NCBI RefSeq assembly: GCF_001316005.1
Contig: NZ_BBBJ01000001.1
Span: 248,001-312,000 of the forward strand
Length of the DNA stretch: 64,000 nucleotides
Direction of reading: 5' to 3'
From: Vulcanisaeta distributa JCM 11217
GTDB lineage: Archaea > Thermoproteota > Thermoprotei > Thermoproteales > Thermocladiaceae
This document shows positions 24,976 to 37,385 of the stretch, piece by piece. Within the stretch, counting starts at the first letter, position 1; each line of letters opens with the position of its first letter. A program made the position numbers and the translations under genes. Under the pieces are notes generated by a model that did no database searches, was not told where the DNA came from, and saw nothing but the letters and a program-made list of their open reading frames with translations.

Positions 24976-26540
24976 TTAATTATTAAAGTTTAATTTTGAT
25001 AATGCCCTAGCTATTCTCCAAGCTCTCTCAACCTTGCCCTCGCTTACTGCCTCCTCATACATCCTTCTGAGTATATCACGTACCTTTATCGCAAGCTCTG
25101 GATGACTTAATACTTCACTTCCTTTTATATAGACGGCGAATCTCTTGCCCCCCCTCCTGCCTAATTTAGCATTATAACCAGCTATTTGTAATCTTTCCCA
25201 AATTTCCATAGCATCTTTAAACTCTTTACGATAAGATATGAGTTCAATACTGCCTTTGGTAGTAATGTTTACTGTCATTTTAATGCCATTAATCACATTA
25301 ATAGATGAATCACCCTTAGCCCTGCCCTTCATATTTGCTAAGATAATTAATCGTTTAAGTTTATTTGCATCTGGTAAAGCGCTTAGATATTCAATGATTA
25401 TTTTAATCATAATATTACTAAACCATTTCTTAGCTATAGCAATGGCCTTGGAGGTAGAAATCATTATCTCCTTTACAGTCTTTATGCTATATTCCTTAAA
25501 GCCGTAATTATACATCCTACCAATTATTGGCTTCCATAAATTATACTTTCTATCACCTATCGTAAGTGCAATTGATTTGTTCTTAATTCTTATGCTACCA
25601 TCACCGAGAATAGCAAATAATAAAAATATTAAAAATCGTCATCACTAAACTTAATGGCTCTTTCAACTACCTCCTTTTTATTCTTAACACCATGATTCAT
25701 GGTTGTTAGAACCCATGCGACACTAACATTATCGTCATTGATACTTATACCACTTACATATATATGGACCTTACCTGGATAACTCAGTATCCAGATTATT
25801 GCTTGCCAAAGATTGTGCGTATTCATTCTCGGATATCCAGCCCTATCTATGGTACCATCAGTTAAGAGCAAACCATATTCCATAGCATTTAATATAATAT
25901 CATCAAATAATTTAGGAATGGTTATATGAATACCCTTAAGCTTAGTCAATGTCAACGCTATTGTCCTGCTTCCATTTGCCTTTCTACTTATCGTGATTGC
26001 TATATGCCTTGTATATAAATGAACTGCAAAGCTCTTATTTTCTTTATTCGGCTCTCCACTAACTAATATTCTTGCTTCGCCCCCCCTTATTAACTCATTT
26101 ATTAATTGTTCAAGCTCATGTTTGCCTACTCTTAACCATCTTTTTCTTACACGTTTCAAAAGACCAAGCATTGATTCGGCTATCCTAACCATTGATTTCT
26201 TAGTTTCTATAATTACTTTAGTTAGATCTTTATTTGCTTCATTACTATAATGATTACTACCTTTTTCGACAATACTCTGATTACCATTTTCACCTAACTT
26301 AAACTCTAGATTATTAATAAACTCGTCTAATGCAATTATATATCTATCAAATGGTGTTCTTGAATCACTTAACAAAATATCCCTATATTTTTCGACTTTG
26401 TTCAGAAATTCATTGATAAGTTTCAGGGCTTCTTTCCTAGTAATATTATCAACAAGTTCGCCAGGAATTAAACGTCGATTTCCTTTAACCTTTATACCCC
26501 CCCAATATATCTTATTCATTTCGGAAGCTAGCAGAACCAT
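24976..26540 (-). CDS. PaREP2b family protein, copy 1 (frame-broken)
   Basis: N-terminal half starts MVLLASEMNKIYWG, then VKGNRRLIPGELVDN, LINEFLNKVEKYRDILLS and a conserved middle (YTRHIAITISRKANGS, LLLTDGTIDRAGYPRMNTH). After SDDDF a T6 appears written as T5 at about 25629. Restoring it gives FLIFLLFAILGDGSIRIKN, DRKYNLWKPIIGRMYNYGF and a C-terminal DNA-binding-like region to SKLNFNN. FAILGDGSI resembles a LAGLIDADG motif. The family is repeated in Thermoproteales and its function is not established. AT-rich codons differ from neighbouring genes. About 520 residues. Confidence 0.75.
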
Positions 26541-26627: not shown

Positions 26628-27101
26628 ATGCATGATAGTAAGAAACATTTTCTGTACGAATTTTACCCATCACCCTCCGTGGAGATAAGCAGGTTCACAG
26701 TCAGGCCTGGCGATGTGATATACGTGAACGTGACATACATAGGAGGTAATTCGTTCCAGGTAACCATTAAGGACCTAACAAGGAACGAGGCATACACAGT
26801 GACAGGTAGTGTAAGCGGCGCATTACTATCGTCCGCCGAGTGCATACTAGAGAGGCCTACCGTTAATGGCCAGTTAACGGCGCTGGCTAACTTCGGAACT
26901 GCGTACTTTGGGCAGGACTACACGGACGTAATGGGCACGTGCTACGCGACGGTGAGCGGTAGCACCGCCGCCTTCGGAACCTTCTCATCAACCGTAGAAA
27001 TAGTGATGACTGCATACAACGGTAAGATCCTGGCACAACCAAGCTCATTAACCAGCGACGGATCAAGCTTCACAGTAACATACGTAAGCAGCGGTAAGTA
27101 A
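26628..27101 (+). pseudogene. Glutamic-peptidase (G1, eqolisin-like) C-terminal part
   Basis: A 157-residue fragment. YEFYPSPSVEISRFTVRPGDVI parallels the YEWYPAPS...VSPGD segment of eqolisins. The later SSAECILERPTVNGQLTALA parallels the AEWIVEDP strand that carries the catalytic Glu, here with Trp replaced by Cys. The usual upstream half with the catalytic Gln and Trp-rich core is absent, and there is no signal peptide, so the gene is probably truncated next to the PaREP2b insertion. These enzymes work outside the cell at low pH, fitting an acidophile. Confidence 0.6.
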
Positions 27102-27224: not shown

Positions 27225-27718
27225 TTATGGATTAAGCATTGGTTTCAACCTCTCCTTCAAACATTCCTCAAGCCTAATCCTTAACTTATTCCTGGCCTTT
27301 CTATCGCCTTGCTCCTCATCTCTTAATTTCTCGCATGTGACCACGTATATCTTTAAACTATTAATCTTCTCACCCAGAACCTTCTTAACGAATTTCTCTC
27401 TACCCACGCATCAAGCCCAACCCATTTACCACTATTGGCGCAGATTTCCTCGAGGTAATGCATTAGGAACTTAACAACGCCCTCGGAACCACCTATATGA
27501 ACTGAGCAATGCTCCTTCAATAACCTACGGGCTACATCATTAGCTTCACCAACGTAATAAACCCCCCCGGAGTCATCAAAGAAGACGTAAGCACCAGCCC
27601 CCCCATGAACATCAATGCTCCCACAATTATAGATACCAAACACGCAATCACCAGCAGAAACACCAATAATATTCAAGCAACCCCTAATGACCCGTTCAAT
27701 ATCACCAACCTGAACCAT
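27225..27718 (-). CDS. GIY-YIG-like nuclease-domain protein (frame-broken)
   Basis: N-terminal 30 residues, then GAYVFFDDSGGVYYVGEANDVARRL and a later His: the strand-turn-strand of GIY-YIG domains with the Arg of the following helix. The rest (GREKFVKKVLGEKINSLKIY to LKERLKPMLNP) is helical and basic. A G4 written as G3 near 27406 joins the pieces. The second Tyr of the motif is kept, but the usual catalytic Glu is not obvious. Function could be a nuclease or only the fold. C7 runs at 27561 and 27598 add residues. Confidence 0.55.
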
Positions 27719-28062
27719 TAATAATCCTTGGTATTTACCATCTTTACTTATTTAGATTAACTGCCTTAAGCATGGGCATTGCTAAGGGTCTTGATCATGA
27801 GTATTCCCTACCAATAACCAACACTACATCAAATCCACACCAACACATAAACCACACCTAACAATCAACGATCAACAACTCTAATGCCTCGCTGGGATTC
27901 ATAATTCCGAAATTCTCTAAAGAGAATAGAAGGGTTGAGTATTGCTCTACGTCTTTTGCTACGCTGATTTGATAACACGGATATGAGTAGGTGTTTATTT
28001 TTGTCTTGGTTTGATTTTGGGTTGAAAGTTAGTTTAATATAGTTGTTTGTGGTTGTTGGTTG
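27719..28062. other. Intergenic region with a short inverted repeat
   Basis: No gene seen. ATTCTC-TAAA-GAGAAT (27912-27927) forms a 6-bp hairpin and resembles CRISPR repeat cores of this order, but it occurs once. The right end (from about 28005) turns strongly G/T rich on the plus strand, the same composition as the mcrB gene that follows, so the compositional boundary lies here. Confidence 0.4.
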
Positions 28063-29860
28063 ATGGATTGGTTTGTTTATAGGTCGGTGTTTAGTGGTTT
28101 TAATGATTTAGGGGAGGGTCATTGATTGGGTTAGGGATAGGGGGGGTAGTAAAGTATTGCCTTTTGTTTGTGTTTTTCCTGGTAATGCTGAGCATTGGTT
28201 TTGGTCCCTTAGGTATTCTGTTGAGGGTGAGGTTGGTTATGTGCTTTGGGGGGGGTGATAGGGTTAGTGGTCCCGTAAGTATTAAAGGCCCTAGTGAGGG
28301 TACTGGGTTTCCGTTTAAGGGCCTTGTTGATAGGTACATTGATGCCTTATTTAGGGTTGAGAGGGAGGGTGGTAGTGTTAGGCTGTTGTTGAGGGGGGGT
28401 CCTGATGAGGCAACGCCTATTATTGCTCTTTTTCACGTAATTGATGTTGGGGGGGGTTGTTGGGATTGGTTTGGTGACTGATATTACTCTTGATGCCTTT
28501 AGGAACTTTAGGTATTGGAGGGAGGATCAAGGTCATTGGATTATTAGGTGGAGGATGAGGGTTCTATGGCTTGATCCTGGTGTTAGAGCCTTCTGTTGAA
28601 TCCCAGCTTTAGATGGGAAAGTGAGGGGGGGGAATTGATTAAGGTGTTGAAGGATAGAATTACCAATAGGCTTGAGATTAATGTGCCAAGGCAGGGAAAT
28701 ACGTGCTTTACGAATGAGAATCTGCGTAGGGAGGTTTGGCAGAAGATAAGTGGTGTACTTTACAATGATGGTGAGGTTAAATCCATGGTTGAATTTTACG
28801 GGCATACAAAACCCTCTGCATCACCTAAGCAGGTTCTTGTCAGTGTTTCTGAATTTAATGTTAATGAGATCGTTAAGAGGGTATCTGAGGATTTTTACTT
28901 TGATGAGGGTTTCATTCGTAGGTTCATTAGTGCTGTGTGGTTTGGTAATGTTCTTCTTGTTGGTCCTCCTGGTGTTGGTAAGACTAGTCTTGCTGTTAAA
29001 GTTGCCAGGTTGTTGGGTGGTGATGATGGTTATATGATTAGGGTTGCCAATGCCCTTTGGTTTAGGCGTGATGTTATTGGTGGTGAGACTCTTGAGGAGG
29101 GCTCTGTTAAGTGGAGGGCTGGCATGCTTATTCAGGCCTATAATAGGGTTGTTGAGAGACTTGTTAATGGTGATAATAGGCTATTTTTCGTTATAATTGA
29201 TGAGCTTAATAGGGCTGATGTTGATAAGGCCTTTGGTGAGTTCTTTGCGATATTTAGGTCGCCAATCCCAGCGATTGGGAGTTTCCTATTAATTTTATTA
29301 ATGAGATTGAGGGGGGGTATGGAGAGAGGATTGATAGGGAGGCTAAAGATTTTCTTGAAACTTTAAGTTAGCTAGGGATAAGTATGGTGATCCTAGTTAT
29401 CCCCTGAGGTATATTAGGATAATAGGTACTATGAACGTTGTTGATATTAGGAATTTATTCATTGTTGGTGAGGCGGCGCTTAGGCGATTTATATTGATGA
29501 GTATTAAATGCCCTGAGGGTAATGATGATGTCGATAAATTCCTGGGTAAAACTAAGTATTTGAATGAGGGGGTCTAGGAAGCTTATTGTCGACTTTGTTA
29601 AGGAGGTTCGTGGTAAACTTCGTGATAAGCCGCCCTGTGTTTCTCCGGGTGCTGTTAAGTTGGCTGTTGAGTTGTTAGATAACGCTGTTGGTCAGGGGTT
29701 GTTGAATGTTAATGATAGGGGGGGGAGCCTGCTTGAGTATTTCGTGAGTTATCTTGAGTCGTCGTTGGGGGGGATTATTATTGGTGAGCCTGTTAAGAGG
29801 TTTAGGAGGGTTGTTGATGAGGTTAAGAAGGGGGGGCTTATAAGTGCTAGTGGGAAGTAA
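28063..29860 (+). CDS. mcrB: McrB-like GTPase/AAA+ with EVE-like N-terminal domain (frame-broken)
   Basis: Motor and DNA-recognition subunit of a modification-dependent restriction system. N-terminal part (to about residue 170): [20 protein letters not shown], a later [15 protein letters not shown], then [19 protein letters not shown], the pattern of EVE/YTH-superfamily modified-base readers. AAA+ part: Walker [12 protein letters not shown], Walker [21 protein letters not shown], and [10 protein letters not shown] in place of McrB's usual MNTxDR. Then comes AALRRF. Breaks at about 28113, 28450-28626, 29265 and 29569. Reading the G5 at 29570 as G4 carries the frame on into the helical lid ([16 protein letters not shown]) to 29860. 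G/T-rich codon use is unlike its neighbours. Confidence 0.75.
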
Positions 29861-29865
29861 TTGAT

Positions 29866-31188
29866 ATGAGTGAGAGAGTTTCTAGAAGGGTAAGGAGGAT
29901 TAGAAATTTGTCGATTCTTGTTGGTAAGTATTACTTGGAGCATTATGGTTTACGTAGGTCCTCTAGGATCTTGCGTGTGTTGCTTGGTCGTATTTCCAGT
30001 GGTGAAGGTGTGCTTGTCGATGAATTAACGAGGAATTACCTATTTACGTCGATGGGTAATGTCGCCGTTAATGACGCCATTAGCGCGATAAGGAGGGCTA
30101 TCAATGACTATATTAGGTATAGGGAATTCAATGCAGTTGTTGATAACCAGGTATGGGGGGGTGTTCTCGATGTTCCGCGTACGGTAATTACGTACCCTGC
30201 CAAGCTTTATTCATCATTAACCTACCTACCAACTACTAGGTCGCCGGAGTATCTGTTGCTTAGGGAGATGGCGATGAGGATACTTAGGTCCACTAAATAC
30301 GTAATTGATTGGTACGAAAGTGCGGTGAAGAATAGTACTAGCGATGAATTGAGTAGGGAATTAGGTAATGAGGTTGACGGCTTGCGAAGAAAACGATTGA
30401 GGTTGAGGCAGTTAGTTATGAGGTTACCAGCGGCAAATGTTAAATATGGACATGAGGATATTGTGATGGAGGTTGAGAGGTTAATGCCTTATGCGCCATC
30501 ATGGCTGTTAGAGACTTATGATGCCTACTTACTAAGCAGGTTTATACCTGGTGGGAGGATTTACGCATCGTTGAAGCGCAGAGTTAGTAACCGTGACATG
30601 GTACTGCTTGGTTGGAGACTTTATGAAATATTCATTTACATGCTTGTACTCGATATATTCATAAACATGGGCTACAGGATAATCAAGAGAAGGGCTAGGG
30701 TGTTAGAACTAGCGAAGGATGGAATTACCGTAGATATTATCTTTAATAGGCCGTTGGAAAATTCGATCATAAACTCCGTTAATTTGAATAAGGATTTAGC
30801 TAGTAAGGTAAGGGGGGGTCGACCTGATGTTTCATTAGTTAATGGTAATAGGAAAACAATAGTTATTGAATGTAAGTTCTCTGAATTACCCATGTACATA
30901 ACCGCCGGTAGATATAAGGTCATGGCCTACATGTACGAGTACAACGCCGAGCTCGGAATATTAGTATTCCCAGGCTTAAACACGAAAAGGATATATGACG
31001 AAGAGGATAGGGCAACCGTAAGGCTTTGGGACTTAATTAAGGTCAACGGTTTTGCTGAGATCTCGCTGAATAATGGTAGGAGATTATTCATGGTTAGGGT
31101 AGATCCAGGTGAATCTAATGATATTGATGAGGTGCAGAGAATAGCCATGGGAAGATTGGCTAATGTACTTAACTCAGTGCTTCATTAG
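29866..31188 (+). CDS. mcrC: McrC-like nuclease subunit
   Basis: Endonuclease partner of McrB, starting five bases after it. Intact, 440 residues. The C-terminal PD-(D/E)XK domain shows [10 protein letters not shown] and, one strand later, IVIECKFS (Glu-x-Lys), then [21 protein letters not shown], a typical conserved helix and strand. The N-terminal 250 residues are helical with a DUF2357-like feel ([16 protein letters not shown]). G7 at 30157 and 30811 each add a Gly, the second just before RPDV. With McrB it would cut DNA carrying modified bases. Targets unknown. Confidence 0.75.
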
Positions 31189-35519: not shown

Positions 35520-35648
35520 TGGGGGGGCCGCCGGGATTTGAACCCGGGATCACTCGGGCATACCCCCCCGCCACCACCGGTCTCAAGCAATGTCCCGGTG
35601 GTGGACATCCAAGCCGAGCATCCTAGCCAGGCTAGACTACGGCCCCCC
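35520..35648 (-). tRNA. tRNA-Pro(UGG) with intron
   Basis: Acceptor halves GGGGCCG and CGGCCCC pair if the G6 and C7 runs are read as four. The 3' end then becomes A plus encoded CCA. The anticodon stem CTCGG/CCGAG encloses C-T-TGG-A, giving UGG (Pro). An intron of about 49 nt sits at the canonical 37/38 position and folds into a perfect 10-bp stem, CCACCACCGG with CCGGTGGTGG. The T-arm is CCGGG-TTCAAAT-CCCGG. It needs tRNA endonuclease, of which a subunit is at 5441. Confidence 0.85.
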
Positions 35649-35827: not shown

Positions 35828-37385
35828 ATGGCTCTTCAGGTCTCTGATAAGATTAGAGTATGTTGGGGGGCGTAAAAGCTAGGGGTAATAAACGTCTAAA
35901 GTGTGGTAATGAGACCGATGAAACCACGAGAAAGGAAGCTTTGAAACTTATTAATGTATTTCTGAACCGAGTCGAGAAGCATAAAGACATTTTATTAAGT
36001 GATGAGAAATCACCATTCGACGTCTACATTAATGACTTGTCAAAATTCATTGAATATTTAAGGATTGAGATGTCTGAAGGAGGTAATGAAAAGGTTTCTG
36101 AAGCTAGGAATGCTATGCTCAGAATAGCAGAAATAATGCTTAAGCTCTCAAGGAAAGCAAGAAAAAGATGGTTAAAATTATATAAGGTAGAGCTTGAGGA
36201 ACTAATTGTCAAGCTAACTAAAGGCGAAATGACAATACCGGTAACTGGAGATATAAATAATAAAAATAGGAGTTTTATAGTACATATGTATACTAATCAT
36301 ATAGCAATAAATGCATGCAGGATTGCTAGGAATGGCAACATAACGGTGAAGTTTACATTCACAGGTCTCAAAGGTGAGCATATTGAATCGCCAAAATTAT
36401 TTAATGATAGTATATTGAAGGCCATGCAGTATGGATTACTTTTGACTGATGGATCGATTTACCAAGGCTATCCAGGAATGGCCACACATCAAATGTGGCA
36501 AAGCATCGTGTGGCACCTAGTGTTTCCAGGTAAAAATTACATAGCTATAGATGGTATCAGTATCAATGATAATATAAGCACCGTATGGCAATTGACATCC
36601 CTTAACTACAAGTTTGAAGGTAAGAGTGCAGTTAATATTAAGCGTGGTTTTGTTGGGGGGGAGGTTGTTGGTTTTGATGATTGGTTGTTTTTGTGGTTTT
36701 TGTTGTTTGCTGTGTTTGGTGATGGTAATGTTGATGTTCAGGATGAGTATGATGTGAGGGAGATTCGGTTGTTCATGGGTGGTGGTAAGTACGTGTTGTG
36801 GAGGCCGATTATTGAGAGGTTGAGTGGGTTGGGTTTTAGGGGGGGTGGTGAGTATGGGTGGGAGTGGGTTGTTAGGGGTTAGGTCTTCGAGGGCTGTTAA
36901 GTTGGCTAGGGAGTGGTTGGGTGATCCCGTGTTTGGGGGGGTTATTATTGGGGGGGGATTTGGCTCGATTGAGCGATGCTGTTAAGCTTAGGCAATTGAT
37001 TGGACTGGCTGGCGTGGGTTATAGGCCGAAGGGTAGGTCCTCCGTGATTATTGGCGGTGTGAAAATGACGGTAAGGGTTCGTGACGGTTATGTGGAGTTA
37101 GTGGCCGTTCACAAGGATGGAGCCGAAATCACGAAGGTTTTAGAGAGTCTTAAGGCCCTGGGGGGGATTAATGCGAGTGTTACTCCGTGGGGGGGTGGTG
37201 GCATGAGCGCCGTGCGTGTAAGGCAGGGTGAGGTGATGAGGCATGATTGGGTTAGGGCCGTGGTATGTGGAAAACTGACTGAAATGCTGAGGGAGGCCGT
37301 GGGTAATGGTGATGATGGGAGATCGCGAAGTATTAATGGCGCCATGCTAGGCTCGGCTGCCAAACCACTACCCCCCCGGATTTAA
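35828..37385 (+). CDS. PaREP2b family protein, copy 2, mosaic (frame-broken)
   Basis: Start ATG 35828 gives MALQVSDKIRVCWG, joined across a G4 written as G6 at 35862 to VKARGNKRLKCGNE. N-terminal and middle regions parallel copy 1 (LLLTDGSIYQGYPGMATHQM, IAIDGISINDNIS). From about 36640 the codons change abruptly from A/T rich to G/T rich, and the C-terminal part (FLLFAVFGDGN, KYVLWRPIIERLSGLGFRG, VKMTVRVRDGYVELVAV) parallels the other copy's end. An extra G at about 36875 breaks the frame. It looks like a recombinant of two family members. Confidence 0.7.

What the first reader, a model, noticed from the sequence alone, without database searches (positions are those of the whole stretch)
28063..31188. 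McrBC-type restriction system with an EVE-like reader on McrB
A Walker-motor McrB and an intact PD-(D/E)XK McrC are adjacent. The first about 170 residues of McrB show the Trp-rich pattern of EVE/YTH readers, which recognise modified bases in other archaeal McrB proteins. The McrB signature MNTxDR is replaced by MNVVDI, so nucleotide hydrolysis or coupling may differ. This is the best-supported defence system here.
Basis: partly seen in the sequence, partly recalled or inferred. Interest (0 to 1): 0.7.

Follow-up and report, generated by a model that had tools for sequence, protein, structure and literature searches.

The report
Divergent archaeal McrBC restriction system
This is a real DNA-cutting defence system (McrB motor plus McrC nuclease) of a hot-spring archaeon, with a domain at its front that probably recognises modified DNA bases; it belongs to a widespread archaeal branch that standard annotation models miss and whose motor control motif differs by one inserted residue from studied McrBCs.

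Summary
At 28063-31188 (+) lie adjacent mcrB and mcrC genes in a Vulcanisaeta-like archaeon. mcrC (440 aa, PD-(D/E)xK intact) is whole. mcrB is split into eight reading-frame segments, most likely by homopolymer errors: complete genomes of two congeners carry the pair intact, and this assembly, like a JCM draft of a related genus, shows a systematic excess of 7-base G/C runs. The N-terminal ~175 residues are an EVE/PUA-like reader by profile comparison (through other McrB readers to EVE; shuffled controls null); a low-confidence AlphaFold model and fold search did not decide it. MNVVDI is not a peculiarity of this gene: all 41 relatives checked have one extra residue between the signature D and the arginine finger (12 instead of 11), and their McrC has a Trp-centred motif where characterised McrCs place the stimulating Arg/Lys. 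The McrC family is in 39 of 398 Thermoproteota genomes, against 7 for Pfam McrBC, and no Pfam, NCBIfam or PADLOC McrC model matches the members scanned. Best reading: a modification-dependent (Type IV) restriction system, a new variant of a known kind. Target base and nucleotide remain untested.

The parts
28063..29860 (+). mcrB (about 585-606 aa in the intact congener orthologues), broken into eight frame segments in this assembly
28063..28596 (+). N-terminal EVE/PUA-like reader domain of McrB (four frame segments: 28063-28122, 28112-28255, 28248-28454, 28453-28596)
28213..28962 (+). approximate recombinant tract: G016-like, while both flanks are G014-like (137:44 against 115:591 informative sites)
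28593..29264 (+). linker and first half of the McrB AAA+ domain
28962..28985 (+). Walker A GPPGVGKT
   Evidence: read; conserved
29199..29213 (+). Walker B DELNR (D, E, N and R as in characterised McrB)
   Evidence: read
29431..29451 (+). signature loop MNVVDIR: NxxD kept, one residue inserted before the Arg
29482..29490 (+). RRF, trans arginine finger / sensor II pair
   Evidence: read
29866..31188 (+). mcrC, 440 aa: helical/finger part and C-terminal PD-(D/E)xK nuclease
30496..30504 (+). PSW motif of McrC, where canonical McrC has N[R/K]xNxxY with the GTPase-stimulating basic residue
30823..30876 (+). PD...ECK nuclease motif
27910..27933 (+). solitary CRISPR-repeat remnant upstream of mcrB; a CRISPR array with cas genes lies at this position in G014

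Best explanation
A two-gene modification-dependent (Type IV) McrBC restriction system. The N-terminal EVE/PUA-like domain of McrB binds DNA carrying a modified base (inferred; probably by flipping the base into an aromatic pocket, as other EVE/YTH readers do). The AAA+ part forms a ring and translocates with nucleotide hydrolysis (inferred from intact Walker A, DExNR, NxxD and RRF). McrC docks through its finger domain and cuts with its PD-(D/E)xK domain (inferred). It belongs to a branch, frequent in Thermoproteota, in which the McrB signature loop is one residue longer (mostly MNxxDxR) and McrC lacks a conserved basic residue at the usual stimulating position, so the step by which McrC activates hydrolysis probably uses other contacts. 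In this assembly mcrB looks broken because of homopolymer sequencing errors.
For: Adjacency of mcrB and mcrC holds across the relatives examined. AAA+ to McrB: PDB hits 6hz4/6ut6, NCBIfam McrB model best match though far below its cut-off. McrC family to canonical McrC (E. coli plus archaeal PF10117 members): hhalign E 5e-7 and 1.6e-8 against at least 0.2 for reversed or column-shuffled controls; Cas4-like nuclease match 4ic1, E 0.002. Reader: hhalign E 8e-9 to other McrB readers, these to EVE 4.9e-5, joint profile to EVE 5e-6, controls null; predicted strand/helix order b-a-b-a-b-b-b-b as described for EVE (PMC7641849). Signature spacing 12 in 41 of 41 against 11 in six canonical sequences. 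PxW at the site in 26 of 30 McrCs, W retained in the other four. Artefact; Ion Torrent PGM was used for the JCM draft of V. souniana, accession series BBBK (PMC9872577).
Against: AlphaFold models were built on shallow alignments and are weak, and Foldseek gave nothing significant. No test of binding, nucleotide or cleavage. The mapping of the PxW motif onto the Arg263/Lys157 site rests on low-identity profile alignment. Raw reads were not available, so true frameshifts are not excluded.
Confidence: 0.8

Rival explanations
1. mcrB is truly broken in this strain (a decaying pseudogene), leaving an orphan McrC.
For: Seven frame changes in this assembly; one (near 28590) is not at a long homopolymer.
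Against: Excess of 7-base G/C runs across the sampled parts of this assembly and in two other assemblies only; the frame segments together give a protein colinear with intact orthologues; mcrC shows third-position-biased change against G014 (0.11/0.09/0.31 at positions 1/2/3); assembly completeness is only 67% at 2.08 Mb, as expected from many broken genes.
Confidence: 0.1
2. The N-terminal domain is a reader of unmodified sequence or of modified RNA rather than of modified DNA, so the system acts like LlaJI (site-specific, methyltransferase-partnered) or targets RNA.
For: LlaJI-type McrBC relatives recognise unmodified sites (PMC12707154); YTH-like domains and RNA targeting are proposed for CoCoNuTs (PMC11090510).
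Against: No methyltransferase among the neighbouring ORFs scanned; DNA-type PD-(D/E)xK nuclease motif intact; EVE-class homology; NxxD, not the NxD motif of CoCoNuTs.
Confidence: 0.15
3. The pair has a housekeeping role beyond defence.
For: Deleting McrBC systems lowered growth of Thermococcus kodakarensis (PMC13385129).
Against: Patchy distribution (39 of 398 genomes; absent from several congeners), readers that recombine and differ in kind, location beside CRISPR-Cas in G014.
Confidence: 0.05

Closest known systems
Thermococcus gammatolerans McrBC (YTH-McrB, m6A reader; cryo-EM structures)
   Same: McrB/McrC pair; PUA-class N-terminal reader; Walker A, DExN, NxxD, RR finger; PD-(D/E)xK McrC
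   Different: Signature one residue longer (D-12-RRF against 11; MNxxDxR against MNxxDR); no conserved Arg at the Arg263 position of McrC; reader not matched to any PDB entry by sequence
Staphylothermus marinus McrB N-terminal domain (PDB 6n0s; identification from memory)
   Same: Crenarchaeal McrB reader of PUA-like fold. A McrB of this wider branch (L073) with the long signature has a reader that weakly matches 6n0s (E 0.007)
   Different: The window reader itself does not match 6n0s by sequence; different reader subtype
E. coli K-12 McrBC
   Same: Gene order, AAA+ and nuclease roles; McrC homology by profile
   Different: Reader is DUF3578, not EVE-like; canonical MNTADRS and Lys157
EVE-McrB fusions (Bell et al. 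2020, PMC7641849)
   Same: EVE-superfamily domain fused to McrB, reported there as the most common EVE architecture in defence systems
   Different: The window reader is below Pfam EVE detection and is linked only through intermediate readers; McrC lineage not seen by Pfam PF10117

Membership tests
McrBC (Type IV restriction) | McrB AAA+ with Walker A, Walker B and NxxD signature | tested here: met
McrBC (Type IV restriction) | Adjacent McrC with finger domain and PD-(D/E)xK nuclease | tested here: met
   homology to canonical McrC by hhalign E 5e-7 with null controls, nuclease motif 30 of 30; the fold model did not retrieve McrC structures
McrBC (Type IV restriction) | Modification-dependent, GTP-driven cleavage | not testable with these tools
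   needs biochemistry
Pfam PF10117 McrC family | Match above the curated cut-off | tested here: not met
   none at these loci
Canonical MNxxDRS McrB / Arg- or Lys-finger McrC | MNxxDR with 11 residues to RRF; N[R/K]xNxxY in McrC | tested here: not met
   12 residues in 41 of 41; PxW in 26 of 30, W in the rest
EVE / PUA-like reader superfamily | Profile homology to EVE | tested here: met
   transitive: A8-A7 8e-9, A7-EVE 4.9e-5, joint 5e-6, controls null; the direct match alone is not significant
EVE / PUA-like reader superfamily | Five-stranded PUA barrel | tested here: inconclusive
   model pLDDT 56.5, element order as in EVE, no significant Foldseek match
YTH m6A readers (TgMcrB type) | m6A-binding aromatic cage | not testable with these tools
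   no YTH profile or sequence at hand; needs structure and binding assay
CoCoNuT | NxD signature and coiled coils | tested here: not met
   NxxD; coiled coils were not tested

The most novel reading that the evidence does not exclude
Thermoproteota McrBCs form a mechanistically distinct branch: the basic residue that McrC inserts to trigger hydrolysis in studied systems is absent, and activation runs through the lengthened McrB loop (MNxxDxR, its Arg acting within McrB) together with the McrC tryptophan motif.
Probability: 0.3. Interest if true: 0.65.

Novelty: new variant of a known kind. Interest (0 to 1): 0.45.

Why it matters
It points to a McrBC branch common in Thermoproteota (39 of 398 genomes) that current protein-family and defence models fail to name, so defence inventories of these archaea probably under-count it. 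The paired changes in the McrB signature loop and in the McrC stimulating site make the general model of McrC-triggered GTP hydrolysis testable in a natural variant. The recombinant reader suggests how specificity is exchanged between species. It is also a warning: an assembly artefact makes the gene look dead.

Tried and rejected
Direct Pfam EVE match: none. Viral contigs: one distant hit (L041); plasmids: none. Host methyltransferases as a clue to the target: a PF00145 (C5 type) hit in all nine genomes tested whether or not they carry this McrBC, and no N6/N4 hits in this error-prone assembly, so no inference. A PaREP1-like ORF (name from memory) just after mcrC is not found beside mcrC in relatives and was dropped. 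CoCoNuT membership rejected by the NxxD motif.

Full report
WHAT IS THERE. The window is C1:248001-312000 of an assembly of 2.08 Mb in 19 contigs, 67% complete. Its nearest relatives include complete genomes of 2,374,137 bp (G014), 2,298,983 bp (G016) and 2,432,148 bp (G017); from memory of their sizes these are V. distributa, V. moutnovskia and V. souniana, so the window is a Vulcanisaeta species (inference). mcrC is one ORF, 29866-31188. mcrB spans 28063-29860 in eight frame segments. Intact adjacent orthologues exist in G014 (L021) and G016 (L022); McrC identity is 82% and 59%.

WHY THE GENE LOOKS BROKEN. G/C runs in the window number 54, 16, 9, 121 and 14 for lengths 4 to 8, while A/T runs fall off smoothly; 240 kb of G014 has no G/C run of 7 or more. 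The same peak at 7 appears in G015 and in G011 (the Thermocladium modestius JCM 10088 contig, same length as). Other relatives sampled show none, except four single runs in G013 and one in G002. Where aligned, window runs of 7 most often face runs of 4 in G014 (30 of 69), so three bases are added and the frame is often kept, which explains extra glycines such as VRGGRPD in an intact ORF. Runs of 8 and other miscounts break frames. The JCM draft of V. souniana (BBBK series) was made with Ion Torrent PGM (PMC9872577), a platform known for homopolymer errors; that this assembly is of the same kind is inference. I read the breaks as sequencing error, without raw reads to prove it.

THE READER DOMAIN. 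An alignment of 21 N-terminal domains from the same branch (A8) has invariant or near-invariant Trp positions and the pattern EHW..SlrYs..gE.GY.lWGd ... G.vGfGlVTDi...RNF..W.E...w..R.rm.vLwl. Members scanned match no Pfam family in this region. hhalign links A8 to the readers of other McrBs of the branch (A7; E 8e-9, 111 columns) and A7 to Pfam-EVE proteins of Thermoproteota (E 4.9e-5); a joint A7+A8 profile reaches EVE at 5e-6. Reversed and column-shuffled controls gave E 0.025 or worse throughout. The direct A8-EVE comparison alone (0.012) is not significant. The AlphaFold model (pLDDT 56.5) gives, after an N-terminal extension, the order b-a-b-a-b-b-b-b reported for EVE (PMC7641849), but Foldseek found nothing significant. 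So EVE-like is supported by sequence profiles and not yet by structure. Which base it reads is unknown.

READER EXCHANGE. Over mcrBC the window is G014-like except for about 28213-28962, where it is G016-like: 137 against 44 informative sites inside, 115 against 591 outside (Fisher p about 1e-51, ignoring linkage and that the tract was chosen by eye). Whether the window or G014 is the recombinant cannot be told. On a larger scale, Caldivirga MU80 (L023) has an AAA+ domain 54% identical to that of G016 but a reader of the other type. Both fit selection for new specificity.

THE MOTOR. Walker A, DExNR and NxxD are present in nearly all relatives (35, 34 and 35 of 36). In characterised McrB the consensus MNxxDR has catalytic Asn and Asp (TgMcrB N410, D413), and its Arg stacks at subunit interfaces (PMC7680126). 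In all 41 matched sequences of this branch (a few near-duplicates) 12 residues separate D from RRF; in E. coli and five archaeal canonical McrBs it is 11. Most of the 41 have Arg at D+2. MNVVDI is thus within the branch norm and the catalytic pair is intact.

THE NUCLEASE PARTNER. The McrC family was found in 39 of 398 Thermoproteota genomes and 20 of 163 genera; PF10117 passed its cut-off in 7 of 398 and at none of these loci. No NCBIfam or PADLOC McrC model matched. It is nevertheless McrC: hhalign to E. coli plus canonical archaeal McrC gives E 5e-7 over 284 columns, and 1.6e-8 for its more distant archaeal cousins, with null controls. At the place where canonical McrC has N[R/K]xNxxY, with the basic residue (TgMcrC Arg263, EcMcrC Lys157) that reorients the McrB signature loop, 26 of 30 family members have PxW[LFI] and the other four keep the W; in the window (PSWLLETY) there is no basic residue in that stretch. 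The equivalence of the sites is an inference from low-identity alignment.

MECHANISM. Shown: gene pair, domain make-up, motif conservation, divergence, mosaic reader. Inferred: recognition of modified DNA, hexamer formation, nucleotide-driven translocation, cleavage by McrC, and altered activation chemistry. The patchy distribution, reader turnover and, in G014, position directly beside a CRISPR array with cas6 and cas3 genes fit defence; the window keeps one CRISPR-like repeat at the matching place.

VERDICT. Main novelty: the branch-wide loop insertion paired with loss of the canonical McrC basic residue, and its invisibility to standard models.

Noticed in passing
whole window; L112 (G015); L025 (G011): Systematic excess of G/C homopolymers of exactly 7 (121 in the window), mostly facing shorter runs (most often 4) in a complete congener; likely a sequencing artefact that adds codons and frameshifts to many genes. 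Other findings from this window that rest on broken ORFs or G runs should be viewed with this in mind.
   Followed up: yes
window 27910-27933: Lone CRISPR-repeat-like sequence upstream of mcrB, the only copy found in the assembly; G014 has a 21-repeat array and cas genes at this position.
   Followed up: partly
window 27353-27718 (-): Small ORF with a GIY-YIG nuclease domain (Pfam E 7e-5) upstream of mcrB on the other strand.
   Followed up: no
window 26628-27101 (+): Peptidase A4 family protein (E 5.5e-16), perhaps cut short.
   Followed up: no
window 25629-26540 (-) and 35860-36882 (+): Two copies of a similar protein (KVKGNRR / KARGNKR ... TRKEALKLIN) flank the region; a relative lies near mcrBC in L021 (1489-3006). 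Possibly a repeated family of these archaea.
   Followed up: no
G110:C1:2582842-2583297 and G104:C1:1763911-1764372: Relatives of the reader domain in open frames of only about 220 aa, apparently not fused to an AAA+ domain.
   Followed up: no
L090, L071, L082: Some relatives carry two mcrBC pairs of this branch close together.
   Followed up: no
window 35523-35646 (-): tRNA match of 124 bases, long enough to hold an intron.
   Followed up: no
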